Shown here: piece after piece, positions 1-20,358 of the stretch
How positions within the stretch are numbered: position 1 is the stretch's first letter
How the letters are laid out: the number at the start of each line of letters is the position of its first letter
Program-made: the position numbers and the translations under genes
Origin: Candidatus Aenigmatarchaeota archaeon
GTDB lineage: Archaea; Aenigmatarchaeota; Aenigmatarchaeia; Aenigmatarchaeales; JACQIB01
Assembly: GCA_016198755.1 (NCBI GenBank)
Contig: JACQIB010000004.1
Coordinates: forward strand, 1-64,000
Length of the DNA stretch: 64,000 nucleotides
Direction: 5' to 3'
Notes under the pieces: model-generated
What the model saw: the letters and a program-made list of their open reading frames with translations, nothing else
Database searches by the model: none
What the model was told of the DNA's origin: nothing

Positions 1-435
1 CGCTGCCGGTTTAGCTGGAGTAGCTGCTGTTGGAGTTGGTTATGCTGCTCTTAGAAACTCCAACAATAGAAAATATGGAAACTCCTCTGCCGGCCCCGGA
101 GAAAGATTAAAAACTTTCTGGAACAATGTTGCAAAAGAGGAAAAGTATTATAATGAAGTTAGGGTTCCTGAAATAAATAAAAGGCAGGCTGAGATTGAAT
201 CTATTATAAAGGGGTTTCAGGAACAGGCTAGGAAGAAGAAAGAGAAGGAAGAACTGGAGAAGGTTGCTGAGCAGGTTGCCTGGGTGAATAAGCTGGCTGG
301 TTCAGGGAAATTATCTACTATGGAGGCTGCTAAGGAGTTGAGAGTTTTATCTGGGAGCGCTGGGATTGGGTATGAGAACTCCCAGAAACTGAGAAGCATG
401 AGCAATAAATTTTTAGAGATAGCAGAGGAGAATGA
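1..435 (+). repeat. Linker cassette shared by A, B and C (copy A)
   Basis: This stretch encodes the membrane segment and coiled coil of gene A. It aligns without gaps to the reverse strand of gene C (18437-18871) at roughly 95% identity by eye, with the first 90 or so bases identical. Bases from about 68 to 376 also match gene B (7677-7985) closely. The cassette lies exactly between the ectodomain and the variable C-terminus, so recombination here would swap C-terminal ends between paralogues. Confidence 0.85.
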
Positions 436-3226
436 TAACAGGCAGAAACCTGTTAAAGAATTGCAGAATATTATGGAACTATATAAATCCGGAAAGCTCT
501 CTGCTGAGGATCTGGCAGCAAAGCTCTATAAACTTTCTAAAAATCCTTACCTGAGCTCTGAGTTAAAGGGTGAGATACTTGGAATAAGAGAGGAGATTTT
601 GAAGGCGCTGAGAGAACAGGGGAGAGGAAAAGAGCTCTCTATGGAACCCGATATAGAAAGTGTAAATCAACCCAGTATTCTGGGGGGTATAACAGGTGCG
701 GTTACTGGCTTTGGAAGCTGGGTGGGAAACGGGATAAACTGGCTTGCAAACAATGTTGGCGAACCAATAAATAAGGGAATAGACTGGGCAAAGGGAAAAC
801 TCTGGGGATATGCAGGGAAAGCAATAGGTGCAGGAGCTGGGTTTGTAAACAGTTCTTTGAACCTTGTTTCTACAGTCCCGTTTGTTGGTTCATCTATAAG
901 CAATTCTATTAGAAACACTATTCTAACTTCCCTCTCTGCTATAAATTCCTCTTTAACAAGCATACAAGATTCAATCCTTTCCAAATCAGACTGGATTGAA
1001 AAGACTTCTGATAGTTTGTCTGTTGCTGGAATGGGAATGATAGGGGCTGGCACAGCATCTATGATGACTGGCTTTGGAACTCCATTTGCTTTTCCAACAA
1101 TGATTGCAGGAGCTGGCATGCTGGCTGCAGGCTCTGTAATGGATGTTTCTGTCTGGGGAGCTAAAGAGAGCGCTGGTAAAGCAAATGGATGGGACAGATT
1201 AAGGGGATTGTTTGGAGCTTTAATGTTTGTGCCCGAGATTGGGGCTGCCGGGAAGGTTGGAAGTGTAGGTAAATTGGTAAAAGGTGGAAGAATGTTGGAT
1301 GAATTATCCAATCTAAAATATATTACTAAGGTTATACAAGATGGGAAAGCATTCTACAGACCACATTACTTAAACTTTATAGATTCAGTTAGTGAAACAG
1401 CAGGCAATGCTGTTAGAGTAACAGACAATTTGATACGGAAACTATTCAATGATCAATTACTGAAAAATCCATTTCTGCGCAAGGATATAGAAATATTAAT
1501 TGAGGAATCTGGGGGGAAGAAGGTTCTTGCAGAGACATTTGTTAAAACCGGCGGCTGGTATCTTGGAAACAAAATAGAAAAAATAATATTTTACAGGAAA
1601 GCGATGGAAAAATTCATAAAAGAGATGAAGGTCGATTCTATAGAATCAATAAGAACAATAATAGACCACGAACTGGGGCATGCAGCCAGTGTGGAAAGCA
1701 GTAAGTTCTGGGAGTTTTTCGGCTTTCCTGTTTCGGTAAGAGATTGGATATTAAATAACATTGTGGCAGATCATCCTGGAGTTTTGGAAGAAATATTGAT
1801 GGGCATAAGAGCGGCTGATAATGATATGTCCAGAATAGATATTGTACATAAGATTGAGGATAGTCTAGGAGGCAAATATATGGAAAATTTTGATTTTGTT
1901 AAGCAGGCAATAAGAGAATTAGAAGGTAAAGCAGCTTCTTCTGGCGGACAGTTTAAGGAAGATTTGTTATATTCTGCCAGAAAACTTGAGGGGCTGATGG
2001 AAAAGTATAAGTTGGAAGGCAAAATATTACCTATATTGGGAGCATTGGGTTTGGGTTCTTTGTTTGGCGGGAAGAAAGATGGCAAAAGTGAAAATAATGT
2101 TGGGGGTTTTGAGGACTCTTCCCTAAAGCTCAGAAAAGATTCTCCAGAGGCTGCTAGGAGGGATGACGAATATAACTGGAAAAATATTCTGGCTGCCATT
2201 GGAGGTGTATTGGGAGCAATATTGTTGGGTGCAACAACAATAACATGTAATGGAGCATCGTTGTTATGTCCTGTATTAGAGCCCCCCATAACTGTGACAG
2301 GAACTGTTTTTGACAGTCTCCACAACCCGCTTTATTCCACAAGTGTGTTATTGCATGGTAGTGGGGATATTAATAAAACTCTTACACAACAGAGCGGTAA
2401 TTTTGATGTAATAGGTTATCATAATGGAACTATAACAGCAAAAGCGGAGCTAAAATACTTCCCCAATGGATTGAATTCCGCTGGCCCAGCAATAGAAATG
2501 CTAAAAATAAACAGCCATAATGCAGACTGGTCGGAAACACAAACTGAAACAGTTTCTAACGAGCAGCACGTAATGAATCAAACCTATACTATAGATTTCA
2601 CGTTCTCTCACGATCAGGGAGGAAATGCATATTATGGGTTGCAAAATTCTTATGATTACTGGAGAAACCACGAGACAGCAAATAGGATTTCAGCTTTCGT
2701 GAACGATCCTAGACCTGCTACAGCATATTATTGCCTCGATAAAGACAAGACATTACCTTATAAATGTACAGCAAGTAACGAAATTCACTTTTCAACTGCA
2801 TACCAGACATATGTTCTTGGACTCCACGAGTACGGTCACTCAATATCGCACAATTGGGGCCTGCCTGGTGGGCATGAAGAGCAACCAAATCCAATAGAAG
2901 AATCCTGGGCAGATTTCGTAATTGCATTGGTTCAAAATAATTCATATATAGGTGAGCCATACAATCTGGATATAAAAAATGCCAGAAATGCATCTGCATG
3001 GGGAAGGGAGTGGGCACTTGCAGGTGTAATGTGGGATTTGGAGCAGGAGAAACAGGGGGTTGTGTACGATACTTTAAAACCCAAGGATGATAAAGAAAAA
3101 ACAACTACACTGGAAATTTTGTATAATAAATTTAATAGCAAAGGCGGAATACCATCTAATGATATCTGCCGTATATTTAAAAAACATGGTTTTAATGCAA
3201 CTGCATGGGATCAAAGTTGTGTGTGA
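2..3226 (+). CDS. Polymorphic-toxin-like protein A with two metallopeptidase motifs (5' end outside window)
   Basis: The frame is open to the left edge, so the ectodomain and signal peptide lie outside the window; the first in-frame ATG (284) is internal, because the residues before it match paralogues B and C. Visible in order: a membrane segment (about 2-50), a charged coiled coil (about 100-430), hydrophobic glycine-rich stretches (690-1150) resembling pre-toxin regions of bacterial polymorphic toxins, a HELGH motif (1667-1681) followed by an acidic LEE stretch, another membrane segment (2180-2260), a carboxypeptidase-regulatory/CnaB-like beta domain (2285-2460), and a second motif HEYGH (2825-2839) followed by EESWAD as a likely third zinc ligand. 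The first peptidase domain resembles the C-terminus of gene D; the second is unique here. The toxin role is inferred from architecture; the zinc-peptidase motifs are seen directly. Confidence 0.75.
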   Translation, partial: AAGLAGVAAVGVGYAALRNSNNRKYGNSSAGPGERLKTFWNNVAKEEKYYNEVRVPEINKRQAEIESIIKGFQEQARKKKEKEELEKVAEQVAWVNKLAGSGKLSTMEAAKELRVLSGSAGIGYENSQKLRSMSNKFLEIAEENDNRQKPVKELQNIMELYKSGKLSAEDLAAKLYKLSKNPYLSSELKGEILGIREEILKALREQGRGKELSMEPDIESVNQPSILGGITGAVTGFGSWVGNGINWLANNVGEPINKGIDWAKGKLWGYAGKAIGAGAGFVNSSLNLVSTVPFVGSSISNSIRNTILTSLSAINSSLTSIQDSILSKSDWIEKTSDSLSVAGMGMIGAGTASMMTGFGTPFAFPTMIAGAGMLAAGSVMDVSVWGAKESAGKANGWDRLRGLFGALMFVPEIGAAGKVGSVGKLVKGGRMLDELSNLKYITKVIQDGKAFYRPHYLNFIDSVSETAGNAVRVTDNLIRKLFNDQLLKNPFLRKDIEILIEESGGKKVLAETFVKTGGWYLGNKIEKIIFYRKAMEKFIKEMKVDSIESIRTIIDHELGHAASVESSKFWEFFGFPVSVRDWILNNIVADHPGVLEEILMGIRAADNDMSRIDIVHKIEDSLGGKYMENFDFVKQAIRELEGKAASSGGQFKEDLLYSARKLEGLMEKYKLEGKILPILGALGLGSLFGGKKDGKSENNVGGFEDSSLKLRKDSPEAARRDDEYNWKNILAAIGGVLGAILLGATTITCNGASLLCPVLEPPITVTGTVFDSLHNPLYSTSVLLHGSGDINKTLTQQSGNFDVIGYHNGTITAKAELKYFPNGLNSAGPAIEMLKINSHNADWSETQTETVSNEQHVMNQTYTIDFTFSHDQGGNAYYGLQNSYDYWRNHETANRISAFVNDPRPATAYYCLDKDKTLPYKCTASNEIHFSTAYQTYVLGLHEYGHSISHNWGLPGGHEEQPNPIEESWADFVIALVQNNSYIGEPYNLDIKNARNASAWGREWALAGVMWDLEQEKQGVVYDTLKPKDDKEKTTTLEILYNKFNSKGGIPSNDICRIFKKHGFNATAWDQSCV

Positions 3227-3232
3227 TTATTA

Positions 3233-3964
3233 ATGATTAAAAAATTGCTTGGAAGCACTGTTCTCGTCTCTATTATAATACTAATATTTTACATCTATCT
3301 TAATTTACAGACCGAGAGCTCTGGCTACTGGAAGCCAGATAAAGCCGAACAGGCTAAACAGCTGGAAACACTAAAACAGATTTATACAGAACGTAACAAC
3401 TGGAGTGCTAGTATAGGTCTAACAGATCATGAAATTCCGAGACGAGTAATATCTGCGGATTATAAACGTATTTATGATAGAGAACTACTCAAAATAATTG
3501 ACGAAAAAACTGCCATTAAGATGGCTACAGATATTATGCAAAACAACCACTCCTATTTTGGCGTGCCTAAAGATCTTAAGATGAAAAACGAAGTTAGAAA
3601 TATCGGTTTTGGAACTTGGGTAATAACATATGAACCACAAACTTATAAGGATTTACAGATTTGTAATGCACAGGATAGTGGTGGGATGTCAATTGATGCA
3701 GACGGTGTTATAACAGATATAGGATTTGTTTGGTATCCCAACCTGACAGCCCCCACTAGACCTAAACTGACAGATGAACAGATAGGCAAAATAGTGGGAG
3801 CACCCCTCGGATGGCTACATGATGGGAAGCTCTGTATTTTTCCCAAGTGGCACCCTGAAGGGGAATATTGGACTTACCATTTGGCAAAGGATTATGGGGG
3901 CCCTATAATAGACACATGGACAGGGGAGACTTTGAAGGAACCGAGACCTCCAATAATAGATTAA
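3233..3964 (+). CDS. Membrane-anchored PepSY-like protein, candidate inhibitor/immunity protein of A
   Basis: This 243-residue protein starts 6 nt after gene A. Residues 5-25 form one hydrophobic N-terminal anchor; the rest is predicted outside the membrane. Two stretches look PepSY-like: about 85-165 (a TAIKMA helix, then GTWVITYE and IDADGVITDI) and about 180-235 (a helix, then WTYHL and IIDTWTGETL). PepSY domains are known from propeptides that inhibit metallopeptidases, which fits a position directly behind a gene with two zinc-peptidase motifs. An outward-facing inhibitor would protect the producing cell or its kin. The PepSY call is by eye and moderate; the immunity role is inference. 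It could instead be an unrelated lipid-facing accessory protein. Confidence 0.55.
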   Translation: MIKKLLGSTVLVSIIILIFYIYLNLQTESSGYWKPDKAEQAKQLETLKQIYTERNNWSASIGLTDHEIPRRVISADYKRIYDRELLKIIDEKTAIKMATDIMQNNHSYFGVPKDLKMKNEVRNIGFGTWVITYEPQTYKDLQICNAQDSGGMSIDADGVITDIGFVWYPNLTAPTRPKLTDEQIGKIVGAPLGWLHDGKLCIFPKWHPEGEYWTYHLAKDYGGPIIDTWTGETLKEPRPPIID

Positions 3965-4513
3965 GTGATATGCATGCTGTATGTATCGAAAATGCGGAAA
4001 GATCCTATGTTTGGTTTATTGAAAAAGCTGGATATGTCACTTACCCTAAACAGTGGAAATAAAACTGAAATAAATCTGGAGTATGAAAGGGAGTGGGACT
4101 ACAATTATTGGGACTACAATATAATGTATAATGCGAGCGCTATACTGAAAGATTTTAACACTATAAAACACCCGGAGCATATACATTCTTATATTTCTAT
4201 GGAAGAAATTAAATATAAAAATGTTAAGGATAAGATAATTAAGAATCTTACATGGCCAAGGCTTATTGGGATTGGCTTCGTGCCGAATAGGCGTGAGGCG
4301 TTGGCCGCAGCAGCAATTATAGTTAAAAGCAAAGCAATGAAAGACCAACCTAATCTAAAGCCGAATTTAAGTGGTTCTGATATATGTAAAATTTTAAAAG
4401 TAAATGAGAGAAAAATTAGAAAGCTAGTTTCTTCAATGGGTGGGAAGATGCTTTTAAAATCATCCCCACGTTCATGTAAAGTATCTTCATGTAAGGTACC
4501 TACGAAGTTTTAA
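3965..4513 (+). CDS. Hypothetical protein with a possible TFB-like cyclin fold
   Basis: A GTG start directly abuts the stop of the PepSY-like gene; ATG codons at 3974 and 3992 are alternatives. The 182-residue product has an unremarkable N-terminal half. Residues about 90-160 resemble the second cyclin repeat of transcription factor B: a helix, a conserved-looking NRREALAAAAII segment, then a helix-turn-helix-like SDICKILKVNERKIRKL. Full TFB has a zinc ribbon and two cyclin repeats, and these are absent. The DNA is more A+T-rich than that of gene A. It may be the third gene of module A, either a regulator or a decayed TFB fragment. The function is not established. Confidence 0.45.
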   Translation: MICMLYVSKMRKDPMFGLLKKLDMSLTLNSGNKTEINLEYEREWDYNYWDYNIMYNASAILKDFNTIKHPEHIHSYISMEEIKYKNVKDKIIKNLTWPRLIGIGFVPNRREALAAAAIIVKSKAMKDQPNLKPNLSGSDICKILKVNERKIRKLVSSMGGKMLLKSSPRSCKVSSCKVPTKF

Positions 4514-5751: not shown

Positions 5752-5838
5752 ATGCTCAGTAGTAATACGACAGACAACGTGCAGAGGATGCCTTTTTATT
5801 CCAGAAAAACCATTTCTCTTTTGGGGTTCAGAGTATGA
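5752..5838 (+). CDS. Short upstream reading frame coupled to gene B by ATGA overlap
   Basis: A 28-codon frame starts at the predicted transcript start (26 nt after the TATA-like box). Its stop overlaps the start of gene B as ATGA, the classic arrangement for translational coupling. In gene C the aligned leader is in frame with the main gene and would add 24 residues before the signal peptide. Whether the peptide is made, or the segment is simply a 5' leader, cannot be told from sequence. Confidence 0.35.
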   Translation: MLSSNTTDNVQRMPFYSRKTISLLGFRV

Positions 5839-8800
5839 ACAAATTATTTTGTATAGTGGCAGCTACCCTCTTCCTTTTAACTATACCAACTGTTTCCTTT
5901 GCCCTAGATCCTTCTATACCAGACAATAATTGGAGAGTTTTTGTTTCCCATGCGTACGGGGCAATAAACCCTGGTCCAGACTGGAATAAACTAAATTATA
6001 ATGACAGTTCTTATGTTTCGGTAATTAACGGAGAAGGGTGGACAACAAAAACGAGCGGAACAGAGCCGATGGGAACCACAGGCAGCGATTCAATTTACTT
6101 TAGAAAGTGGATAGACTGGAGCGGGCAGGATTTGTGGTTGAAATCTTGGGATGGGTATGGTGGGGAGTGTTTTGTTAACGAGCAAAGGGTAGCGGAGAAG
6201 CACTTCTATCTATCCAAATACCTGAAGCCAGGGAAAAACCTGATAGCCTGCTATATTATTGGACCAGGCATGGACGGTATTATGTCTACTTTTTATGGGA
6301 ACCTTATTACAGTTTCTGATAACCAGATAGCCTGGTCCAATGACTGGACAGACTGGTATCTTACTGACAGGCCTGTTACTACAGGAACAGAGGGCAAGTA
6401 TTATTATTGCTATAATGGGAATTGCAAGGAAACGGGTTTCTGGGCCTCTGCCTGGCCCTGGTCCACCGGCGGAGGAACGGCTTTCAAGAAATCAATCTAT
6501 CTTTCTAGCACAAACAACTCTTATCTTCTGGTTGGGTCGAACGTTGGCACTGGTGGGTTCTGGTGCTCTGTAAACGGAGATTGGACAAAACCGGATTCCC
6601 TTGTAGGCTTTTCCCAAAACACACATGAAAAGTACAATTTAATTGCTGATGTTTCCACAAAAGTAAAGCCTGGCTTGAATATAGTAACCTGCTTTATCTC
6701 CACTTATTCTGAACCAAATCCCTATCCAAAGGGTTTTAAAAAGTTTGATATGAATTTTGTGCAGTTGCCCGTTAAATCTGATATAACTGGACTGGCAGAA
6801 TATTCTGTTCCGATAGATGATGCAACAATAACTGCTTTGGTTTCCGGTTCTGGCAATACTACAGTATATGCTGAGCTGTTAAAGGGAACACGGTCTATAG
6901 ATAAGATAGAAACAGATACTGTTCTGGCTGGTACAGGAACAGTTAAACTAACATTGGATGTTTCAAAGGATAAAGCTGTCCAGTCCAGCAGGAATACATG
7001 GAAATACTATGTTGTAAACCATCTCAATCCTGTTCCCAGCTCAGACTGGTATAAAATTGGTTTCGATGCAGAATCCTGGGGAGATACTGATATGCCTACA
7101 TCTGCTGGAGGAGGGCCACTATTTATAAGGAAAATATTATATTTAGAAAAGCCCATTGATATTAAACTGAAAGCATGGGAGGGATATGCTGGATATTGTT
7201 TCGTAAATGAAAACAGAGTGGAGGGGCAGAATATACAGATAGGGCAATACCTAAGGGCAGGGGAGAATGTTATTGCATGTTCAATCTGGGGTCCGGGGAG
7301 GGACGGGATAACAACAACTTTCTATGGAGAACCTGTTCTACCACCTACCTATACTGTTTTATCCAATAGTTTTGGAGATTGGTTTATTGTTAACAGCACC
7401 GAAAGTCCAATTCTTTCCCTTACTGAACCAAAAAAGTATTCTGTTAAAATAACAGCTGTTTATAATGAGTATGGGATTTCCAAATCTGCAAACTACCCAA
7501 TCGAGTTTACAGAAACCCCAATTGTTCTGCCAATAACTGGAAACCCGTTTGTTCAGGATACTGGATCGGGCGGTAACACAGGAACAAGTTCTAGTTCCAG
7601 TTCTTCTGCAATACCGCTTGCTTTAGGTTTAACAGCAGTGGGTGCTGTTGGCGCTGGGTATGTTGCTCTGAATGGAAGGAAATATGGAAACTCCTCTGCC
7701 GGCCCCGGAGAAAGATTAAAAACTTTCTGGAACAATATTGGAAAAGAGGAAAAGTATTATAATGAGATTAGGCTACCTGAAATAAATAAAAGGCAGGCAG
7801 AGATTGAGTCTATTATAAAAGGGTTTCAGGAACAGGCTAAAAGAAAGAAAGAAGCGGAGGAACTGGAGAAGGTTGCTCAGCAGGTTGCTTGGGTGAATAA
7901 ACTGGCCGGCTCTGGAAAGTTATCCACTATTGAGGCTGCTAAGGAGTTTAGGTTATTGGCTGGGACTGCTGGGATTGGGGCTGGAGCTTCCAGCGCTCTC
8001 TGGCAGGCTAGCTCAAATTTATTGGAGGAACAAACCGTCAAACCCCCAAAAAATAACCAGAGCTACCTATACTCCACATCATCTACTACAGCAGTCTATG
8101 ATCCATATTTGGAACAAGGCCCCACAAGTGCAGAATACCTGTCGAGCGGAATCAATTGGTTTGTTAATGCCATGTGGGATAAGTTTGACTGGGTTACTGG
8201 GAAAGCAACAGGATTTGCAAAGGATGTTTACAATACTCTAAAGCCACTTCCGCTAATAGGTCCACTTGTAAGCTGGGCTGGTCCTCCAGTAGCCGGCACT
8301 GTTTATTGGGCATATGATACGGCGGACAATTACATATATGCTAACAGGAATACTATAGCCGGGGTTAGTGTTGGGCTTAGCGTGACTGGGATAGGGTTTA
8401 TGGTCATTAGCATGGCTGCTGCCCCTGAGGCTGGAGCAGCGGCTGGGCCTTATGGGCTTGCATTTGACACTAGTTTGTTTGCTATCGGAGCTATAGCAAC
8501 TGCAGCTGGGGGTGTTATAGATGTGGCTCTTGGAAATTCCTATCTCAGAAGAAAGGAGAGAGTAGAGGGTACTGTACTTTTGATTAGCGGTTTCATGAGC
8601 TTTATACCTAGTGGGGCAGTAGAGAGAAAAGGACTGGAAATTATTGCAGAAAATACACTGAAACAGATTGGAAAAGAGGGTTCTGTAAGGCTTGTCAGTA
8701 GATGGGGGAAATATGCAGAATGGGCTGCACTATACCTGAAACATAACGGGAGGGCTGTTACAGAGGAGGAGATAGAAATGCTTGTCAAGAGCCGCATAGG

Positions 8801-9617
8801 GTATTTGAAAACCCTGAACAATCCGGAGCTGAATGCAAAAATAGCTCAGTTGGATACAATGGATCCGTTTATGACTCCGGCTAGGAGAAAATTGTTGCTG
8901 GAGGATGTGTTTGAGAGTGATATGACCATAAACATAATTGGAAATATAGACGAGTCTATTTTGAAGGGTATATCTAATAAATACGGACACGACGTTGCAG
9001 AGTTGATAAGGCTTGACGCTAAAACAATGGGAAGGAAGCTTACAGAGGCTGAGGTGAATATTCATGCGAGATCACTCAACTATTTATTAAAAAATGGGTT
9101 TCAGATAAATGAAGTTGAAAGATTCTTGTCAAATCAGATGAGTAGTGCCGAAAGAAAAGTATTTTTAGAAAAGGTAAAACCATTAGAGAACACCATAGAA
9201 GAAATAAGAAATCCAGCCTTTACAAAAACTCCAGATAAGATTTTCGGTAATGTTATAATAGAAGAAAAAGCTATTACAAAAGAAGGACTTATTATTAGAG
9301 ACGTAGAAGATTTGATGAATGAATTAAAAGGTGCGAGGGAACAACTAAAACCAAATGAAGCAGCTATAGGTAAAGCTTATAATAAGCCTATATATGTTAC
9401 AGATGGTTATCATAAGATTATAAGCTATGATGCTAGGAAAGGTATATGGAAAGCCAATACAAACAATTTTATAGCTGATATGAGAGGGTTTTTAGAAGAT
9501 ACACGTGCTCAGCATATAGATGAAATATATATAACTATAAAAGAAAACAATATAGAAAAGACATTTCGTGTATTTAGAGGTATTAGAAGAGAAGTGTTGT
9601 CTGAGGTGATTGTATAA
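5835..9617 (+). CDS. Polymorphic-toxin-like protein B, unknown C-terminal effector
   Basis: The 1260-residue product starts with a signal peptide (1-23) identical to that of C. The ectodomain has three related jelly-roll-like units (about 28-155, 160-300, 385-510), each with a tryptophan-rich core and paired cysteines. The linker PFVQD is at 571-575, followed by Ser-rich sequence and a membrane segment (about 590-612). Then come the charged coiled coil shared with A and C (about 615-720), a hydrophobic glycine/alanine-rich pre-toxin-like stretch (about 835-925), two helical YG...GRKLTE-type units (about 955-1000 and 1045-1090), and a C-terminal domain of about 140 residues that I do not recognise. 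From about 9100 the DNA becomes visibly A+T-richer, suggesting that the end was acquired. The stop overlaps the next start by 1 nt. Confidence 0.75.
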   Translation: MNKLFCIVAATLFLLTIPTVSFALDPSIPDNNWRVFVSHAYGAINPGPDWNKLNYNDSSYVSVINGEGWTTKTSGTEPMGTTGSDSIYFRKWIDWSGQDLWLKSWDGYGGECFVNEQRVAEKHFYLSKYLKPGKNLIACYIIGPGMDGIMSTFYGNLITVSDNQIAWSNDWTDWYLTDRPVTTGTEGKYYYCYNGNCKETGFWASAWPWSTGGGTAFKKSIYLSSTNNSYLLVGSNVGTGGFWCSVNGDWTKPDSLVGFSQNTHEKYNLIADVSTKVKPGLNIVTCFISTYSEPNPYPKGFKKFDMNFVQLPVKSDITGLAEYSVPIDDATITALVSGSGNTTVYAELLKGTRSIDKIETDTVLAGTGTVKLTLDVSKDKAVQSSRNTWKYYVVNHLNPVPSSDWYKIGFDAESWGDTDMPTSAGGGPLFIRKILYLEKPIDIKLKAWEGYAGYCFVNENRVEGQNIQIGQYLRAGENVIACSIWGPGRDGITTTFYGEPVLPPTYTVLSNSFGDWFIVNSTESPILSLTEPKKYSVKITAVYNEYGISKSANYPIEFTETPIVLPITGNPFVQDTGSGGNTGTSSSSSSSAIPLALGLTAVGAVGAGYVALNGRKYGNSSAGPGERLKTFWNNIGKEEKYYNEIRLPEINKRQAEIESIIKGFQEQAKRKKEAEELEKVAQQVAWVNKLAGSGKLSTIEAAKEFRLLAGTAGIGAGASSALWQASSNLLEEQTVKPPKNNQSYLYSTSSTTAVYDPYLEQGPTSAEYLSSGINWFVNAMWDKFDWVTGKATGFAKDVYNTLKPLPLIGPLVSWAGPPVAGTVYWAYDTADNYIYANRNTIAGVSVGLSVTGIGFMVISMAAAPEAGAAAGPYGLAFDTSLFAIGAIATAAGGVIDVALGNSYLRRKERVEGTVLLISGFMSFIPSGAVERKGLEIIAENTLKQIGKEGSVRLVSRWGKYAEWAALYLKHNGRAVTEEEIEMLVKSRIGYLKTLNNPELNAKIAQLDTMDPFMTPARRKLLLEDVFESDMTINIIGNIDESILKGISNKYGHDVAELIRLDAKTMGRKLTEAEVNIHARSLNYLLKNGFQINEVERFLSNQMSSAERKVFLEKVKPLENTIEEIRNPAFTKTPDKIFGNVIIEEKAITKEGLIIRDVEDLMNELKGAREQLKPNEAAIGKAYNKPIYVTDGYHKIISYDARKGIWKANTNNFIADMRGFLEDTRAQHIDEIYITIKENNIEKTFRVFRGIRREVLSEVIV
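7677..7985 (+). repeat. Linker cassette shared by A, B and C (copy B)
   Basis: Direct copy of the cassette at 68-376 and inverted relative to gene C. It encodes the conserved KYGNSSAGPGERLKTFW start of the coiled coil. It is slightly more diverged than A and C are from each other. Confidence 0.8.
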
Positions 9618-10114
9618 TGTCTTACGATTTGATTTTTAAATTTAAATTTTATAGAAACGCGGTAGTAGATGTAGAGCAAATCATAAAAATTATTCTATCT
9701 GTTTTCCCCATAAAATTTACAAAATCCCCAGAATATATCGTTGTGTATTACGATGAAAAGTTTTGTAAGGACTTTCACATAAATTCTGAAAAGTATCTAT
9801 TTGAGCGGATAAATGAAGTTAAAAACCTCGGTTTAATTAGGGAGGTTGGTTTTGGATGTAGACTGTTAGGTAGACATTTTGATATAGATATTACAAAATA
9901 CAAACTTGGAGACAACATTAACAGCAATGTTTTCTTGTCGTCTGTCTCTAAGGCGTGGATTAAAGCTCCAATAGAAGAAAAGAAACAGTTTAATAACATG
10001 CTGAGAGTGTTAGAGAAAAGGCTTAAACCCGAAATTAAATCTCTAGACAATGATATAGCAAAGTATATGTTGGATAAAGTAGATAAGAACGGATTTATAA
10101 TAAAGCAAAGATAG
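9617..10114 (+). CDS. Small protein overlapping gene B, candidate immunity protein
   Basis: The start codon shares one base with the stop of gene B (TAATG), so the two are translationally coupled. The 165-residue product has no signal peptide or membrane segment, is rich in Lys, Ile and Asn, and matches no family I know. Tight linkage to an unrecognised C-terminal effector is the usual layout of toxin and immunity genes. The base composition is A+T-rich like the end of gene B, as if both arrived together. A degenerate copy of its last codons occurs at 11003. The immunity role is inference. Confidence 0.6.
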   Translation: MSYDLIFKFKFYRNAVVDVEQIIKIILSVFPIKFTKSPEYIVVYYDEKFCKDFHINSEKYLFERINEVKNLGLIREVGFGCRLLGRHFDIDITKYKLGDNINSNVFLSSVSKAWIKAPIEEKKQFNNMLRVLEKRLKPEIKSLDNDIAKYMLDKVDKNGFIIKQR

Positions 10115-11998: not shown

Positions 11999-12171
11999 TG
12001 CTTCAAAAGCTATTTTACAATTAGAATTATTTTAACTACTAAACATAATCCGCCAGTTGAGATTAGAAAGTTTTTGACAAAGGATAATATAGCTCTTCGT
12101 ATAATAGATTAATACAACTAGAATTGCAAGTAGTGTAAGTGCCAGAGAATATGTGTGGTGTTGAGCAGTAT

Positions 12172-12217
12172 TAATCGTCGGTATCTCTATCCCCAATATT
12201 CGGCAATTGTAGTGCAA
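12172..12217 (+). repeat. Module-end element, copy 2 (after module B)
   Basis: It contains CGTCGGTATCTCTATC and GGCAATTGTA in the same order and spacing as the copies at 4560 and 15483, with a 2 nt gap. It lies between the last gene of module B and the TATA box at 12226. The rest of the 258 nt gap 11999-12256 shows nothing else but that promoter. Confidence 0.6.
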
Positions 12218-12225
12218 AACATGGG

Positions 12226-12233
12226 TTTATATA
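12226..12233 (+). promoter_or_regulatory. TATA box of the 12257 gene
   Basis: TTTATATA centred about 27 nt before ATG 12257. It indicates a leaderless transcript and rules against a longer frame from 12155, which would begin inside the module-end element region. Confidence 0.75.
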
Positions 12234-12256
12234 AGTTTCGGTTTATAATTATTGTC

Positions 12257-15200: not shown

Positions 15201-15472
15201 GGCCTAAGCCAAGGGTTGTTTCTGACCAGTCAATGTCTCCACCGCCTATGCCAACTGGAGTTTCAGACCTTTTGGCTTCAACACCAGCCCCTCCAACAGA
15301 TAGTGTTGCTTTGAGAGCTAGTGTAATGAGAGGGATGGAGCCTCCGGAAGATTTATCAGGAGTTGGGATGCATCCCGGTGTTCCAGCAAACGGGAATGGG
15401 GAACATGTGGATGTGGAAGGGATTTTGGGTGGATTGGGATTAGGGAAAGGAAAGGGCGGGGCAGGGAGATAA
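12257..15472 (+). CDS. Large membrane surface protein with Ig-like ectodomain and cytoplasmic tail
   Basis: The 1071-residue product has a basic N-terminus, a hydrophobic segment at about 105-125, a Lys/Glu/Pro stretch, a long helical alanine-rich region (about 185-470), Ig- or cadherin-like beta domains (about 470-680, with DDNDN motifs), a Pro/Asn linker and a second membrane segment at about 705-725. The remaining 345 residues are predicted cytoplasmic. Part of them (about 745-860: YVGPGGRVMFVE, a central helix, then DVLCIITN) loosely recalls roadblock/longin folds, and the tail is Pro-rich. The start follows from the TATA box 27 nt upstream. It sits between modules B and C. Not assigned to a family. 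Confidence 0.6.
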   Translation: MAKGVQLHRRRIVHIPAPVQNGYGSGSYVPPAQAVADIRENPLIAVACAMYGPRPNARYGSSSNFRPLKGTERALRDAATQYKQGEHPVLSAVARAGYSVIKAVDDVAGPAVGIVAVGTLATIGGVVPLEKDSTGKTPEKISEHPDKEQAKVPIVKEAKEPVKVSEKMKGQEYKAPEKQEPVKTVAKGRGRAATEFFAGAGQVVSYVSAVDGGNADGSFDPSDRAQVQQVGPIAQYLAGVASAFKDTDPANGIFVQHWWNMQQQMKSNVTQDLSGAPGGNCGQSVDEGGARYNGAHKALEYIAAMKALAGKAGLDINGSPAQKPGNYLGVFGWEVSKSIRANEAATNKALQQGCTVDKSEAYIPAEDIGPGVDTLAKLAQAVDGLKQWVDKEPTGLGPVSPWVAGVDNLGKVYTGALARASAQALVDGIGLAKKYNDAGLGIDQVSDAFAGLVPFNLPPTIEGLALDSAVPAYLGFEPILKGNMRDPDGKGIRSGQVQVGDDIADLPVSGKVTEKIEYALKNLRLGNNKVLVRAGDSAWVVDTSMDVNVTDPAPTMDTWNSSVEKVSDGLYKVYVSAFLADDNDNIDGVRAVDVNGSGFNIGLEKTTVTKLENGKTFVRYEGVQNVRLKNPGDSKDLTLQLRYKDPTNPEVQAPNTERINVVYPKPAPPNPINNGTPNGTPLNNSTVIPPIVDNGDGHTEPPRDYRGLLAGLVALGGGGGAGIWQRRRIAAALGMGSRINGGNVRYTPLAGNGYSQNVDLTSILDAIVYVGPGGRVMFVEQSKRGNQFLSKGSRIDTDLAGGMIDAVLSGLGQVLGNNISSAVTTLADGSKARYVRGRSGDVLCIITNPKHANAPPEQLSLVLPQLDQKLEQEMEQTMRDIENLVPELKDWQGETSSTDSAGQKVNAPIVDRIAEVVRTRVIEGKDPVLVLQPLPQASVPPVDSRGGLLDAQGEAERPTGDIPHPEITAHVQPADGFGPPVRPKPRVVSDQSMSPPPMPTGVSDLLASTPAPPTDSVALRASVMRGMEPPEDLSGVGMHPGVPANGNGEHVDVEGILGGLGLGKGKGGAGR

Positions 15473-15585: not shown

Positions 15586-16026
15586 GTGTTAGATATAGAG
15601 CTTAGAAAAATAATATATGGTCTTATTTTGATAGCCTTTGTTGTGACAACTGTTATTTTCTGGCAAATAATGAAATTAAATGAGCTGAATAATGGTAGCG
15701 AGCTTAAGAACAATGTTGCAGAATTTATACAAAAATTTCATACATTAAAGTCTGCTGGAAAGGATAGTTTTGACAACATCACACTTCATGTCCCAAATGG
15801 ACAACACCTCACCATAGACATAGAAGACACATCTAGCTATATCAGCTATTACAATGGTTTAAACTTCACTTTTATCTTACCAGCTAAAATAATAAAATTT
15901 AAAGACAAAGATACGATATACACAAAGGGTAAGATAAATTTTACGAATGACACGTATAAGATAAAGTTATATTATGGTGTACTAAAGGACGAAAATATTG
16001 AACCGTGGACTCTCACTTTTGAGTAA
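15586..16026 (+). CDS. Small protein with N-terminal membrane anchor
   Basis: The 146-residue product starts at GTG 15586. Residues 9-29 are hydrophobic and the remainder is a soluble, beta-rich domain with several N-glycosylation-type NFT/NDT sites, so it probably faces outward. It is convergent with the 124-residue gene of module C and lies between that gene and the module-end element. It could be an extra anchored inhibitor or a pilin-like protein; neither is shown. The frame is A+T-rich but clean. Confidence 0.5.
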   Translation: MLDIELRKIIYGLILIAFVVTTVIFWQIMKLNELNNGSELKNNVAEFIQKFHTLKSAGKDSFDNITLHVPNGQHLTIDIEDTSSYISYYNGLNFTFILPAKIIKFKDKDTIYTKGKINFTNDTYKIKLYYGVLKDENIEPWTLTFE

Positions 16027-16082
16027 TTGTGTTCTATAAAGTGCCAATGCATAAAATCCATCAGCACTTCGCTCTAACGACA

Positions 16083-16457
16083 TTATTTGAAGCGTTTTTT
16101 TATAATATTCAATGTATTTTCTGTTATTTTGCCTTTTGTTTTCAAGTCCTTTTTAGCAGCCCTATAAAATAATTTGAATAACAAATAGGATTTTTTATCC
16201 TTAGGTGGATTTATAATACTATCCAGTGTTTTTTGGGATTCACCACGACGCTTTAATTGATCAACATATTCCTCAAATCTTTCGTAACCTTCTATTATTG
16301 CTTTTTGTCTTTCTATATCAAATGATATGGCTTTTAAATGATCCCTCAAGACACCCAATGCAGCTTCTTCTTTGCTCAGTCTCTTATTTATAGCATCCGT
16401 TAAAATAAAACTTCCATACCATGGCTTAAAGGTTTTAGGTGTATTATACTTAGACAT
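16083..16457 (-). CDS. Small protein overlapping gene C, candidate immunity protein
   Basis: The start lies inside the last codons of gene C (8 nt overlap), so translation is coupled. The 124-residue product is charged and mostly helical (KEEAALGVLRDHLKA, then a central coiled helix), with no signal peptide. It is unrelated to the small genes behind A and B, as expected if each partners a different effector end. A+T-rich. The immunity role is inference from position only. Confidence 0.55.
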   Translation of the reverse strand: MSKYNTPKTFKPWYGSFILTDAINKRLSKEEAALGVLRDHLKAISFDIERQKAIIEGYERFEEYVDQLKRRGESQKTLDSIINPPKDKKSYLLFKLFYRAAKKDLKTKGKITENTLNIIKKRFK

Positions 16458-19400
16458 TTTCTATCACACTCCTCATAGTTTTTATAGTTTTATCAAGATA
16501 TGTTTTCGTGGCCGGGGAAAGTCTGCTTATTATATCATTCAGTTGATGATTTACAATATCATCACTTAGATTTAAGGTCTTTAAGTATGCAATATCAGAA
16601 ATATTTTCTTCTCCAATGGATAATATTTTATCGGATTTATTATAAAAATATTTTATATTAGATAACAATGACTGTACAGTCTCACTCCACCCCTTTACCA
16701 TTCTCGGATCTTCTTTAAGTACAAGATAATCGGCAATCAAGCGTTCTTCTATGGTTTCTGTAAGCTCCTTTTTGGCTGCTTCGGATATATCCAACTTATC
16801 CACCATTTTAGCAATATCATTTTCTGTCGGTATCTTTCCAGCAGCTCTTAGCTCTTCTTTCAATATTTCCTTTGTCTCGTGGCGCATTCCAAATTCGAAT
16901 CCGTCTTCAGATAGTTTGGCAGCTTTTATAGGGTTTACACCCAATATTTTTGTTCCCTTTACAACTCCAAAAGAAGCATCTAGTCCCTCGCTGTCTACAA
17001 TATAATTTGTAAAGCTTTTGTCCGATAATATGCGCTCTATTCTATTGTTGGATATTCCGGATTTCGAGAGCTTTGAAGCAAATCTAGCTAATCGCCCAGC
17101 TTCTGTTGTTGTCAATTTCCTTCCAGTTTTTAGAACAATACGTCCCACAAGTTCGACAGCTTCCTCTCCGTTTGCTTTTATTAGCGTTTGAAGACCTTTG
17201 CGCCCAATCATTTCAACAAGTAACTTTACACCCGATTTTGTTGGCATTTCTATAACGCCACCTATTGGCATAAGATCTGCCATATCCCAAGCATCTAGAA
17301 CCAATCCAGCACCCATAAACTCTACAATCGCCTGTTCAGCATGAATTTCACTTATGCCTAACTGCTGGGAAATTACAAGAGGTGCATCTTCCCCATATCG
17401 CATAACAGCATCATCTACTATCATCTGATCAGTTGGATTTCTTTTATAGGGTTCAATAAATGTGTAATAGAAATTATTTGAAATTGTTGACACCCTATCT
17501 GATACGGTCTTTCCTACATTTTTTACTATGTTAAACATTCCAAAAAATCCATAATTTTGATAAGAATCATTAAATACATTGTCTAGATTAGACAAAAGCT
17601 CTATATATTTTTCCCTACTTCCAACTGTTCCTTTATCTATAGTATTTTTCAGCCAGCTGTCTAATAAAGTCTTTATTTTGCCGTATTTTTCTTTGCTAAC
17701 TAAGCCATTATTAATAAAGAAACTAGAAAGATTGCCGGCGTTCTTTATTGAGAGCTTATCCCCAGACCTCTCTGCCAATAACTCAGCAGCTACAATTTGT
17801 TCGAGCTCGCGCTTTGTAAGTTTAACATCTGGATGTTCTGTGTATCTTTCTATTAAATAAAGTTGCTGCATAACAAAATAATTAACTTTAGAATTAAATT
17901 GTTCTACACCTGCTTTAACTCTTATTAAATCGTCCGCCTCAAGTTCATCAAGCCATGTATTGGTGTAGTATCTTGCGCTATCCAACTGAAGATCCCATCG
18001 GTTCTGATAACGGTTCTGATGTATGTACAGGTGTGCCATCTCATGTGCTATAGTTGATTTAGTTACAAAACTATAAACATCTACAGTTTCTTGTATCTTA
18101 TCATCTACCTCTCGGTATATCTTATCTGTTGGAGTTTTCAATACAATGAAATTCAGACTTGCCTCAGCATTTCTATCATCTCCAATATTTCCTAAGGCCA
18201 CAAAATCAGGCTTTATACCAAAATTAGCTTCTTGTTTCTCTATTTCACGTTCCAATATGCTACGCTCTTCTTGTGGTAGTGTACTTAGTGGTTTCCAGCC
18301 TTCTATCAAAGCATGAAGTCCATCGCTAGCATGAAATATGGCGCCTTTTGTCCAATCTAGAATATTGCTTACCCCATTCATAATGTTTTGCGGTATACTA
18401 GAGATTCCATTAATATTAATCGTATTTCTGTTGTTTTCATTATCCTCTGCTATCTCTAAAAATTTATTGCTCATGCTACTAAGTTTCTGGGAGTTCTCAT
18501 ACCCAATCCCAGCGCTCCCAGATAAAACTCTCAACTCCTTAGCAGCCTCCATAGTAGATAATTTACCTGAGCCAGCCAGTTTATTCACCCAGGCAACCTG
18601 CTCAGCAACCTTCTCCAGTTCTTCCTTCTCTTTCTTTTTCTTAGCCTGTTCCTGAAACCCCTTTATAATAGATTCAATCTCAGCCTGCCGTTTCTTTATT
18701 TCCGGAACCCTAATCTCATTATAATACTTTTCCTCTTTTCCAATATTGTTCCAGAAAGTTTTTAATCTTTCTCCGGGGCCGGCAGAGGAGTTTCCATATT
18801 TTCTATTGTTGGAGTTTCTAAGAGCAGCATAACCAACTCCAACAGCAGCTACTCCAGCTAAACCGGCAGCGAGCGGGATTGCAGAAGAACTAGAATCTGT
18901 TCCTGCGCTGTTAGAGCCGCCACCGGAATCCTGAACAAACGGGTTTCCTGTTATTGGCAGAACAATTGGGGTTTCTGTTATTTCCAGGTTGTAATCCTTG
19001 CTCTTGCTAATCCCATACTCATTGTAAACAGCTGTTATTTTAACAGAGTATTTTCCTGTCTGGTTAATATTCAAAGTTAACGGAACTTCTGTTTGCCCGT
19101 CCAAATCCAGAGTATCTTCTATGGGCAGAGCAACACTCTTCCCGTTTTCAAACAGTTCGGCATAAACTGTTGCATTCCCTGCACCGTTAACCAAAACTGT
19201 TATTGTTGGATCTTCAACTGTAACAGAATAGCTGGAAAGCCCTAAAATATCCAGAGACTTTTGCACAAAACTCATGTCAAATTTCTTGAAACCACCCGGT
19301 CTGGGGTTTGGTTCTGCATAAGTGGAGACCCAGCAATTTATATTATTTATGCCTGGCTTTACCTTACTGGAAATGTCAGCCATAAGGTTGTACTTTTCGT

Positions 19401-20217
19401 GGGTGTTTTGTGAAAATCCCACTGTTTCTCCAGTCCAGTCACCGTTTACAGAACACCAAAATTTATCTTTACTCCCAATATCGGCGATATTTGTTCCAAG
19501 CAACAGGTAAGAGTTCTCTGTGCTGGAAATATAGAAGGATTTCTTGAAAGCAGTCCCGCCCCAATTAGCCCATGGCCATGCAGAATTTTCAAAACAGCCA
19601 TAAGATTCCTCTGGATAATCATAACAGAAATAGAATTTGGCTTCTGTTCCTGTATCAATAGGCCTGTTATTAACAAACCAGTGATTCCAGTCATTGCTCC
19701 ATGCCAATTGAGAATCGGAGACTGGAGTAAACTGGCCGTAAAAATAGGCTTGTTTATTGTTCCAGTAATCTGCACCCTTGCCCCAGATTGAACAGGCAAC
19801 TAAATTGATTCCTGTCTTTAGATAGTCTGATAAATGTATATCTTGGGAGTCGACTTTCTGGTCATTGATATAGCAGGTTCCTGCATATCCCTCCCAGGCT
19901 CTGAACCATAAATCCTCCCCATTCCAGTTTATTGTTTTCCTGAAGTAAACTGGATCGCTGCCCGTAATTCCTATATTTTTTATTCCGTCTCCAACCCTGT
20001 CTACCCATACTGTATAGCTATCTCCTGGACAATTGCCAGAGCTATAGGAAGAATCATCATAATTTATTTTATACCAATCGGGTCCGGGAGTCATGTATCC
20101 ACAGCTTCCATGGGAAACAAACATTCTCCAGCTGTTATCAGTGGAAAAAGCAAAGGAAACAGTTGGTATAGTTAAGAGAAAAAGGGTAGCTGCCACTATA
20201 CAAAATAATTTGTTCAT
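16450..20217 (-). CDS. Polymorphic-toxin-like protein C with HEMAH metallopeptidase domain
   Basis: The 1255-residue product has the same 23-residue signal peptide as B, which is why 20217 is chosen, although a TATA box 26 nt before ATG 20289 would allow 24 more residues. Two jelly-roll-like ectodomain units (about 25-320) and one Ig-like strand set precede PFVQD (426-430), a membrane segment (about 450-470) and the coiled coil shared with A. A zinc-peptidase domain follows: HEMAH at 725-729 and DELEAD about 30 residues later as third ligand, homologous to the end of protein E. Then come a hydrophobic stretch (about 950-985), a GRKLTT unit (about 1030) and a last domain containing HETKE. The final 300 nt are A+T-rich. 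The stop is overlapped by the next gene. Confidence 0.75.
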   Translation of the reverse strand: MNKLFCIVAATLFLLTIPTVSFAFSTDNSWRMFVSHGSCGYMTPGPDWYKINYDDSSYSSGNCPGDSYTVWVDRVGDGIKNIGITGSDPVYFRKTINWNGEDLWFRAWEGYAGTCYINDQKVDSQDIHLSDYLKTGINLVACSIWGKGADYWNNKQAYFYGQFTPVSDSQLAWSNDWNHWFVNNRPIDTGTEAKFYFCYDYPEESYGCFENSAWPWANWGGTAFKKSFYISSTENSYLLLGTNIADIGSKDKFWCSVNGDWTGETVGFSQNTHEKYNLMADISSKVKPGINNINCWVSTYAEPNPRPGGFKKFDMSFVQKSLDILGLSSYSVTVEDPTITVLVNGAGNATVYAELFENGKSVALPIEDTLDLDGQTEVPLTLNINQTGKYSVKITAVYNEYGISKSKDYNLEITETPIVLPITGNPFVQDSGGGSNSAGTDSSSSAIPLAAGLAGVAAVGVGYAALRNSNNRKYGNSSAGPGERLKTFWNNIGKEEKYYNEIRVPEIKKRQAEIESIIKGFQEQAKKKKEKEELEKVAEQVAWVNKLAGSGKLSTMEAAKELRVLSGSAGIGYENSQKLSSMSNKFLEIAEDNENNRNTININGISSIPQNIMNGVSNILDWTKGAIFHASDGLHALIEGWKPLSTLPQEERSILEREIEKQEANFGIKPDFVALGNIGDDRNAEASLNFIVLKTPTDKIYREVDDKIQETVDVYSFVTKSTIAHEMAHLYIHQNRYQNRWDLQLDSARYYTNTWLDELEADDLIRVKAGVEQFNSKVNYFVMQQLYLIERYTEHPDVKLTKRELEQIVAAELLAERSGDKLSIKNAGNLSSFFINNGLVSKEKYGKIKTLLDSWLKNTIDKGTVGSREKYIELLSNLDNVFNDSYQNYGFFGMFNIVKNVGKTVSDRVSTISNNFYYTFIEPYKRNPTDQMIVDDAVMRYGEDAPLVISQQLGISEIHAEQAIVEFMGAGLVLDAWDMADLMPIGGVIEMPTKSGVKLLVEMIGRKGLQTLIKANGEEAVELVGRIVLKTGRKLTTTEAGRLARFASKLSKSGISNNRIERILSDKSFTNYIVDSEGLDASFGVVKGTKILGVNPIKAAKLSEDGFEFGMRHETKEILKEELRAAGKIPTENDIAKMVDKLDISEAAKKELTETIEERLIADYLVLKEDPRMVKGWSETVQSLLSNIKYFYNKSDKILSIGEENISDIAYLKTLNLSDDIVNHQLNDIISRLSPATKTYLDKTIKTMRSVIENV
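18437..18871 (-). repeat. Linker cassette shared by A, B and C (copy C)
   Basis: Minus-strand counterpart of 1-435, gap-free and about 95% identical by eye. With copies A and B in the opposite orientation, recombination between them could invert the intervening DNA or convert one gene end to another. Confidence 0.85.
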
Positions 20218-20310
20218 ACTGCTGGCCCCAAAAGAGAAATAGTTTTTTGGGAATAAAAAGGCGTTCTTTGTATTCGTCAATTGCTGCATAGATAAAGTGG
20301 GGGAGAAATC

Positions 20311-20318
20311 TATTTAAA
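20311..20318 (-). promoter_or_regulatory. TATA box of gene C
   Basis: Minus-strand TTTAAATA centred about 26 nt before an ATG at 20289 that is in frame with gene C. Gene B has a TATA-like box and a leader start at the equivalent place. Confidence 0.65.
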
Positions 20319-20332
20319 ACTGGTTTTGGGCT

Positions 20333-20358
20333 ATTTTACTCGGACAGGTGGGTAAAAT
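20333..20358. promoter_or_regulatory. Palindrome upstream of gene C
   Basis: ATTTTACTC and GGGTAAAAT form 9 nt arms (one wobble) around 8 nt, 15 nt before the TATA box. It is equivalent to 5686-5706 before gene B. The rest of 20218-20393 holds only the leader of gene C. Confidence 0.4.

What the first reader, a model, noticed from the sequence alone, without database searches (positions are those of the whole stretch)
1..20358. Archaeal polymorphic-toxin-like family with exchangeable ends and coupled small genes
Seen: six paralogues (A-F) share a hydrophobic segment after a PF[VI]QD-type linker, followed in A-E by a charged coiled coil. Ectodomains vary and C-termini differ. A, B and C are each followed at once by an unrelated small gene (6 nt gap, 1 nt overlap, 8 nt overlap). 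Known: bacterial polymorphic toxins show this layout of conserved delivery part, pre-toxin stretch, variable effector and adjacent immunity gene. Inference: this archaeon uses such proteins in cell-cell conflict or host attack. The topology, which places the effector behind a membrane segment, is unusual.
Basis: partly seen in the sequence, partly recalled or inferred. Interest (0 to 1): 0.9.

Follow-up and report, generated by a model that had tools for sequence, protein, structure and literature searches.

The report
Archaeal shuffled adhesin-effector membrane proteins
A small-genome archaeon carries at least nine large surface proteins built from swapped parts (sticky outer domains, one membrane anchor, and variable nuclease or protease ends), which look like weapons or host-manipulating effectors, but how they would reach another cell is unknown.

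Summary
The observation largely holds and is bigger than reported. The genome encodes at least nine paralogues: A-F in the window, G-I elsewhere, about 41 kb or 4.6% of the genome. Each has a signal peptide (A's start is lost at the contig end), a disulphide-type adhesin ectodomain, one transmembrane helix (positive-inside rule: C-terminus inside), a coil or pre-effector region, and usually a PD-(D/E)XK-like nuclease and/or a zincin. Domains are shuffled: A and C are 96% identical in DNA over 448 nt, then unrelated. Behind the membrane helix, cysteine is almost absent (6 in 7,803 residues, 85 expected). Gene a is a membrane-anchored PepSY/YpeB-like protein, i.e. a predicted protease inhibitor; it follows A, which uniquely ends in an extracellular thermolysin/fungalysin-like protease. 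Genes b and c are real but singletons. Adjacent small genes occur only behind the three proteins that do not end in a zincin (3/3 versus 0/6). Best reading: a polymorphic-toxin-like effector family for contact with a partner cell. Topology resembles nanohaloarchaeal SPEARE proteins, without their VirB4 ATPase. Membership in bacterial polymorphic toxins is not established: no known delivery module, no immunity shown, close relatives in only two other genomes. New variant of a known kind.

The parts
2..3226 (+). Protein A (1074 aa visible; 5' end cut by contig start): TM1 - coil - hydrophobic hairpin - zincin ZN1 - TM2 - extracellular protease tail
   Evidence: open frame; contig start; module matches
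80..436 (+). A: charged coil shared with B and C
   Evidence: 93% identical to C copy; DNA 96% over 448 nt
974..1351 (+). A: hydrophobic hairpin (pre-effector) module shared with E, B and with G003/G004 relatives
   Evidence: alignment A2 and HMM search
1454..2071 (+). A: zincin module ZN1 (HELGH)
   Evidence: homologous to D, I and G003
2186..2242 (+). A: second transmembrane helix (6 K/R before, none after: C-side outside)
2240..3223 (+). A: extracellular tail, CarboxypepD_reg-like domain plus thermolysin/fungalysin-like metalloprotease (HEYGH...ESWAD), 6 Cys
   Evidence: motif
3233..3964 (+). gene a: N-terminal TM plus PepSY/YpeB-like domain; predicted inhibitor of the A tail protease
   Evidence: HMM E=1.9e-5, next best ORF 2.1
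5835..9617 (+). Protein B (1260 aa): signal peptide, ectodomain (galactose-binding-like by inspection, internally repeated), TM 7608-7664, coil 7689-8027, hairpin 8343-8675, nuclease-like C-terminus 8940-9554
9617..10114 (+). gene b: 165 aa singleton, candidate immunity gene of B
   Evidence: 1 nt overlap; coding and RBS; no relative
15586..16026 (+). pilin-like small protein next to c/C; its homologue lies next to the G003 family member
   Evidence: E=2e-17; found only in G000 and G003 of 40 genomes
16083..16457 (-). gene c: 124 aa singleton, candidate immunity gene of C
   Evidence: 8 nt overlap; coding; no relative
16450..20289 (-). Protein C (1279 aa): signal peptide, B-like ectodomain, TM 18826-18882, coil 18436-18792, zincin ZN2 17572-18396 (HEMAH...ELEAD), unique helical C-end 16453-17571
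50813..55633 (-). Protein D (1606 aa): DUF2341, shared ectodomain 53768-54619, TM 53621-53677, pre-effector-2 52088-52519, nuclease (CdiA_C-like) 51542-52111, zincin ZN1 50858-51478
55687..61881 (-). Protein E (2064 aa): shared ectodomain 60931-61791, LamG 58429-58851, TM 58102-58158, hairpin 57133-57459, nuclease-like 56608-57159, zincin ZN2 55690-56469
62354..64000 (-). Protein F (707 aa, runs on to 64477 outside the window): ectodomain, linker and TM of the family; C-part without nuclease or zincin match

Best explanation
A lineage-restricted family of at least nine single-pass (A: two-pass) membrane proteins that works like a polymorphic toxin system. The N-terminal half is exported and folds into disulphide-bonded lectin/adhesin domains that bind a partner cell (shown: signal peptides, LamG/DUF2341 matches, even cysteine counts; inferred: the partner). 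One helix anchors the protein with the C-terminal half on the cytoplasmic side (shown by charge bias only). That half carries a coil, a membrane-active pre-effector region (hydrophobic hairpin or a C-x9-C module) and effector domains, PD-(D/E)XK-like nuclease and/or zincin protease, exchanged by recombination between paralogues (shown). On contact the cysteine-free effector half would be released, perhaps cut by the zincin, and handed to the partner (inferred; no delivery machine identified). Protein A is a special case: a second TM puts an extra thermolysin/fungalysin-like protease outside, and gene a supplies a membrane-anchored PepSY-type inhibitor protecting the producer (homology shown, inhibition inferred). 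Genes b and c are probably the corresponding immunity proteins of B and C (position only). Members ending in a zincin have no dedicated partner, as expected if their targets are distant cells such as a host.
For: Mosaic structure with abrupt junctions: A/C 96% DNA identity over 448 nt then none, B/C 82%; ZN1 shared by A, D, I, G003 protein J and ZN2 by C, E, G, H in different contexts. Zincin catalytic motifs: HExxH in all eight zincin copies, ELEAD in all four ZN2 copies. Nuclease: D 1264-1358 matches the whole Pfam CdiA_C model, E=7e-4 but below the curated cut-off; canonical PD...ExK-like motifs read in B, H and I. Cys avoidance: 6 in 7,803 residues after the TM versus 85 expected, P=4e-29, and the 6 are three C-x9-C pairs. 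Topology: 0-1 K/R before and 3-7 after TM1 in B-F, I and J, reversed at A TM2. Gene a PepSY/YpeB-like; A tail related to a secreted FTP/PepSY-bearing protease of G020. Partners 3/3 of non-zincin-terminated versus 0/6 of zincin-terminated members, Fisher P=0.012, or 0.033 with F. Same architecture in another family of the order (G003 protein J).
Against: No toxicity, immunity or transfer is shown. Effectors lie on the producer's own cytoplasmic side by prediction, an odd place for a weapon without a known exporter. Six of nine members have no adjacent small gene. No known polymorphic-toxin delivery domain, pre-toxin domain or immunity family was found above cut-off. The nuclease fold is unconfirmed: AlphaFold2 gave pLDDT 75-84 for that domain but Foldseek gave no significant PDB match, and D and E have VEH/IEH where the ExK lysine is expected. 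The partner/zincin association rests on nine proteins and was noticed after the fact. Relatives are too few to test C-terminal type against small-gene type across genomes.
Confidence: 0.55

Rival explanations
1. Contact or virus sensors with a self-acting effector: the adhesin ectodomain detects a virus or foreign cell, and the cytoplasmic nuclease/zincin acts inside the producer, as in abortive infection; small proteins a-c keep it off.
For: Predicted N-out/C-in topology places the effectors in the producer's cytoplasm; nucleases and proteases are common in defence; variable ectodomains fit variable triggers.
Against: Extreme cysteine avoidance in the C-half is not expected of an ordinary cytoplasmic protein; LamG/DUF2341-type domains suggest glycan adhesion; no PADLOC model matched except one marginal, irrelevant hit; A's protease tail is outside; nine such systems would be a heavy load in a 0.9 Mb genome.
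Confidence: 0.14
2. Feeding and uptake proteins: the ectodomain docks to a host, the hairpin helps to open a passage, and the cytoplasmic nuclease and zincin digest host DNA and protein that enter (the role once proposed for SPEARE proteins).
For: Explains the cytoplasmic-side nucleases and the lack of immunity genes in most members; such a role was suggested for SPEARE (PMC6642349); the small genome suggests dependence on a host.
Against: Does not predict shuffling of C-termini, cysteine avoidance or small genes coupled to A-C; the SPEARE nuclease assignment was later rejected (PMC10266531).
Confidence: 0.15
3. Ordinary surface remodelling proteins: adhesins with processing zincins that mature the cell envelope or shed their own ectodomains; the nuclease resemblance is spurious.
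For: A-tail plus PepSY-like a resembles a protease with a separate propeptide or chaperone, a housekeeping arrangement; nuclease assignment is sub-threshold; pilin-like neighbour points to the cell surface.
Against: Zincins lie on the other side of the membrane from the ectodomains; nuclease-like motifs in B, H and I; recombination at the effector boundary; patchy distribution (3 of 156 genomes with the hairpin at strong E).
Confidence: 0.12

Closest known systems
Bacterial polymorphic toxin systems (Zhang et al. 2012, PMC3482391), including CdiA/Rhs/LXG/MuF types
   Same: Conserved N-terminal part, pre-toxin stretch, exchangeable C-terminal nuclease or metallopeptidase; abrupt recombination junctions; adjacent small gene in some members; C-terminal metallopeptidase effectors and toxins without immunity genes are known there.
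   Different: No T5/T6/T7/PVC delivery module, RHS or FilH repeats, or HINT/PVC releasing peptidase detected; the effector sits behind a TM helix on the cytoplasmic side; immunity candidates behind only 3 of 9; the held text of that paper has no mention of PepSY.
SPEARE giant proteins of Nanohaloarchaeota (Hamm et al. 2019, PMC6642349; reanalysed in PMC10266531)
   Same: Small-genome archaeon, signal peptide, LamG/adhesin ectodomain, one TM, C-terminal part predicted in the cytoplasm; several copies taking about 4% of the genome.
   Different: SPEARE are mostly 3,300-9,400 aa, largely Ig repeats, with a conserved VirB4/TraG ATPase inside; here 700-2,079 aa with variable nuclease/zincin modules and no ATPase match.
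Archaeal polymorphic toxins and conflict systems (Makarova et al. 2019, mBio 10:e00715-19; paper not held here) and VARTIG of Thermococcales (PMC8416519)
   Same: Hypervariable, recombining large secreted or membrane proteins in archaea with variable downstream genes; colicin D and PD-DExK toxins reported in archaeal islands (PMC6393860).
   Different: VARTIG has Ig domains and no identifiable toxin domains; the present effector modules were not recognised by Pfam, NCBIfam, PADLOC or PHROGs above cut-off.
YpeB/double-PepSY proteins of DPANN archaea (cls.004634 in PMC6393860) and FTP/PepSY propeptides of thermolysin/fungalysin peptidases
   Same: Gene a aligns over residues 84-168 with proteins that match YPEB_PepSY1-2, DUF4901 and FTP; predicted outside the membrane; that paper expected an unknown protease as partner.
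   Different: Here the PepSY-like protein is encoded next to a candidate partner protease, at the end of an adhesin-effector protein.

Membership tests
Polymorphic toxin system | constant N-terminal part joined to unrelated C-termini by recombination | tested here: met
   A/C/B shared coil with unrelated continuations
Polymorphic toxin system | C-terminal domain belongs to a known toxin fold | tested here: inconclusive
   CdiA_C E=7e-4 below cut-off; HExxH zincins; Foldseek inconclusive
Polymorphic toxin system | cognate immunity gene directly downstream, tracking the toxin type | tested here: inconclusive
   a fits A's protease by class; b, c singletons; absent in 6 of 9
Polymorphic toxin system | recognised trafficking or releasing module (T5SS, T6SS, T7SS, PVC/DUF4157, HINT, RHS) | tested here: not met
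   none above cut-off in Pfam scans of A-I or NCBIfam scans of A-D, F and J
Polymorphic toxin system | toxicity neutralised by the small protein | not testable with these tools
   needs expression assays
SPEARE giant proteins | LamG/adhesin ectodomain, TM, cytoplasmic C-terminus | tested here: met
   LamG in E and H; charge bias
SPEARE giant proteins | conserved VirB4/TraG-like ATPase in the C-terminal part | tested here: not met
   no ATPase match in any member
PepSY/YpeB-like inhibitor (gene a) | sequence match to PepSY/YpeB family | tested here: met
   family HMM E=1.9e-5, next ORF 2.1; best of 2,000 shuffles 10.8 versus 20.5 bits; related proteins match YPEB_PepSY1-2 and FTP below curated cut-offs; direct Pfam scan of a gave nothing
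Thermolysin/fungalysin-like peptidase (A tail) | HExxH with downstream glutamate (ExxxAD) and homology to a family member | tested here: met
   HEYGH...ESWAD; E=2e-4 against L008, which carries FTP/PepSY below cut-off; no direct Pfam peptidase hit

The most novel reading that the evidence does not exclude
A new delivery class of contact-dependent effectors in small archaea: lectin-tipped, membrane-anchored proteins hold nuclease and protease effector domains, kept free of cysteine, on the inner face of the membrane and hand them to a partner cell on contact, with PepSY-type propeptide inhibitors serving as immunity proteins.
Probability: 0.22. Interest if true: 0.87.

Novelty: new variant of a known kind. 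Interest (0 to 1): 0.6.

Why it matters
How small symbiotic archaea act on their partners is largely open; SPEARE proteins, pili and unknown effectors are the current candidates. This family offers about nine concrete effector candidates in one genome, a clear modular boundary to clone at, a plausible protease/inhibitor pair (A tail and a) that could explain an orphan DPANN PepSY family, and a topology puzzle (effectors behind the membrane, no cysteine) that can be tested directly.

Tried and rejected
Marginal HMM hits of the nuclease and hairpin profiles in other genomes (G012, G030, G052, G125, others) were opened; the long reading frames at those places are LeuRS, DNA ligase, a Rad50-like ATPase and other unrelated proteins, so they were rejected as chance. 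Two genome-contig scans, three viral-contig scans, tblastn in plasmids and phages: nothing. PDB sequence searches with the nuclease and ZN2 profiles: nothing relevant. AlphaFold2 of gene a alone failed (pLDDT 41), so its PepSY assignment rests on sequence. Foldseek on the D nuclease-zincin model: mostly kinases at E>0.01; XPF-ERCC1 and MUS81-EME1 (PD-(D/E)XK folds) appear lower down but are not significant. Imm30 match in I (E=0.001 on a 35-residue stretch, below cut-off) judged chance. SseC, ApoL and NheB matches to the hairpin are below cut-off and kept only as a hint of membrane insertion. A multi-module query scored too few candidates per genome and was replaced by module profiles. 'Immunity gene for the zincin' was rejected for a and c: ZN1 and ZN2 recur in members with no such gene.
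Full report
WHAT WAS CHECKED. The window is the first 64 kb of contig C2 of an 891 kb, six-contig, 89% complete archaeal genome. The archaeal nature follows from neighbouring genes read in the frames: Hef helicase and ERCC4-type nuclease, HerA ATPase, small RFC subunit, geranylgeranyl reductase. All genomes offered for its phylum fall in one class; about 156 were available. DPANN affiliation is my inference from genome size and content.

OBSERVATION. Frames A-F and the three small genes exist as described, with the stated 6 nt gap, 1 nt overlap and 8 nt overlap. Codon usage supports a, b and c as genes in their own frames, and b is preceded by GAGGTGAT within the end of B. The interval given in the finding covers only A-C. 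A begins inside its transmembrane helix because the contig starts there, within a stretch that is 96% identical to C; its ectodomain is unknown.

THE FAMILY IS LARGER. Profiles of the zincin modules found three more members in the same genome: G (C2:80003-84994, 1663 aa), H (C3:4113-9797, 1894 aa) and I (C3:11305-17544, 2079 aa). A profile of the ectodomain shared by D, E, H and I added none. Nine members make about 13,600 aa, or 4.6% of the genome. In the phylum the hydrophobic hairpin module occurs convincingly in only two other genomes, both in the same order but other families: G003 (protein J, 902 aa, same layout, ending in ZN1 and a lysine-rich tail) and G004 (a short form cut by the contig end). 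The A/B/C coil was not found in any other of 95 genomes.

ANATOMY. (i) Ectodomain: B and C share one (55% over 393 aa); D, E, I and H share another; D adds DUF2341 (E=1.9e-15), E and H add LamG (E=1e-26, 9e-17). Cysteine counts between signal peptide and TM are even in every member (8, 8, 8, 8, 2, 20, 14, 16, and 16 in J), as expected of disulphides. (ii) Linker and TM: 25 residues before TM1 hold almost no K/R, 25 after hold 3-7, in B-F, I and J (the automatic TM placement for G and H was off by some residues, but basic residues also follow the helix there; for A only the after-side is visible, 4 K/R); A TM2 shows the reverse. So the C-half is predicted inside, and A's tail outside; A's tail has six cysteines, a secreted-protein feature. 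(iii) Behind the TM: coil; then hairpin (A, B, E, J, G004) or a second pre-effector module (D, G, H, I) in which G, H and I carry a C-x9-C pair that D lacks entirely. (iv) Effectors: a nuclease-like domain in B, D and E (alignment A3), of which D 1264-1358 matches the full Pfam CdiA_C model at E=7e-4, below the curated cut-off; by eye, canonical PD...EEK in B, DVDG...VESK in H and IDID...AEVK in I, while D and E read VEH/IEH where the lysine should be. AlphaFold2 models the D domain as a mixed beta-alpha fold with pLDDT 75-84, but Foldseek finds no significant match. Two zincin families: ZN1 in A, D, I, J and ZN2 in C, E, G, H, the latter with invariant HExxH...ELEAD and a WLxNTIDKG signature.

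RECOMBINATION. A and C are 96% identical in DNA over 448 nt and then unrelated; B and C are 82% identical from linker through coil and then unrelated. A continues with the hairpin of E and the zincin of D; C continues with the zincin of E; B with the nuclease of D/E. This is shuffling at domain borders, not simple divergence.

CYSTEINE AVOIDANCE. After the TM, 11 proteins sum to 7,803 residues with 6 cysteines, all in the three C-x9-C pairs; 23 cytosolic proteins of the same genome give 1.09%, predicting 85 (P=4e-29). This is a real constraint. It fits a part that is later exported or must unfold, and fits poorly with a permanent life in the cytoplasm. It does not say where the part goes.

THE SMALL GENES. 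Gene a: a phylum search gave weak matches to three proteins of one genus over residues 83-167. Those proteins match YPEB_PepSY1-2, DUF4901 (YcdB/YcdC) and FTP, below curated cut-offs. A profile built only from them ranks a first among 1,065 frames at E=1.9e-5, next 2.1, and above 2,000 shuffles of a. Gene a thus is a TM-anchored PepSY/YpeB-like protein, the class that inhibits or chaperones thermolysin-type peptidases (PMC6393860 cites this for a DPANN family whose protease was unknown). Protein A alone ends in a protease of that type: its tail aligns at E=2e-4, HEYGH...ESWAD included, to a secreted protein of G020 that carries FTP/PepSY itself. Both are predicted outside the membrane. This is the best-supported effector/partner pair, and it is inferred from sequence only. 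Genes b and c have no relative in 155 genomes. Across the set, small partners sit behind exactly the three members that do not end in a zincin (A, B, C) and behind none of the six that do (D, E, G, H, I, J): Fisher P=0.012, or 0.033 if F is counted. The comparison was made after seeing the data and is small. In bacterial systems a notable share of PVC-type toxins also lack immunity genes, read by Zhang et al. (PMC3482391) as aimed at distant organisms.

NEIGHBOURHOOD. A pilin-like protein (15586-16026) lies beside c/C. Its homologue lies beside J in G003, next to a TadA/TadC pilus cluster (E=2e-17). Among 40 near genomes only these two have it; a second copy in this genome lies with another pilin-like gene. 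This may be a delivery or attachment link, or only a shared surface-gene neighbourhood.

HOW IT MOST LIKELY WORKS. Adhesins bind a partner, the anchored protein holds effector domains on the inner side, and contact leads to release and transfer of the cysteine-free half, possibly with zincin cleavage and membrane insertion of the hairpin. Shown: architecture, shuffling, topology bias, cysteine avoidance, one inhibitor-like partner. Inferred: partner cell, transfer, toxicity, immunity. I put the general reading (effectors acting on other cells, polymorphic-toxin-like) at 0.55.

COMPARISON. It works like a polymorphic toxin system but fails one defining test (no known delivery module) and leaves two open (toxin fold, immunity), so I do not file it as a member. 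It has the SPEARE layout (adhesin, LamG, TM, C-terminus inside; PMC6642349) without the VirB4/TraG ATPase that PMC10266531 finds in SPEARE, so it is not one of those either. Polymorphic toxins in archaea as such are known (Makarova et al. 2019, cited through PMC12988326; not held here). I rate it a new variant of a known kind.

Noticed in passing
26504-29719 (-): One secreted protein carries four tandem Hint/intein-like domains (CFLPGT...VHNKGG repeated four times), resembling bacterial intein-like modules; unusual in an archaeal surface protein.
   Followed up: no
52979-53566 (D residues about 690-885, - strand): The segment after D's TM matches many phage tail tape-measure profiles (best E=4e-8), probably through amphipathic helix repeats; a possible hint of a translocation function.
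   Followed up: no
15586-16026 (+); L046:3092-3535; L067:7378-7854: Pilin-like small protein family present only in this genome and G003 among 40 relatives, each genome having a copy next to a member of the adhesin-effector family.
   Followed up: partly
L041:17837-18370 (C3): Small TM-containing protein gene 293 nt downstream of member I; too far to count as a coupled partner but a possible one.
   Followed up: no
1-448 (A) versus 18425-18871 (C): The contig starts inside a repeat that is 96% identical to part of C (first 120 nt identical), so the assembly break at the window start is probably caused by this family.
   Followed up: partly
L059, L060, L061 (genus g21 genomes): Membrane proteins with an N-terminal YpeB/double-PepSY-like region, possibly the DPANN-specific PepSY family reported as having no known protease partner.
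   Followed up: partly
12155-15472 (+): 1105 aa protein between B's and C's gene groups without any Pfam match.
   Followed up: no
L040:6004-10995 (G, residues about 1110-1270): Besides ZN2, member G has a further zincin-like region with a degenerate HAVAH motif, perhaps an inactive copy.
   Followed up: no
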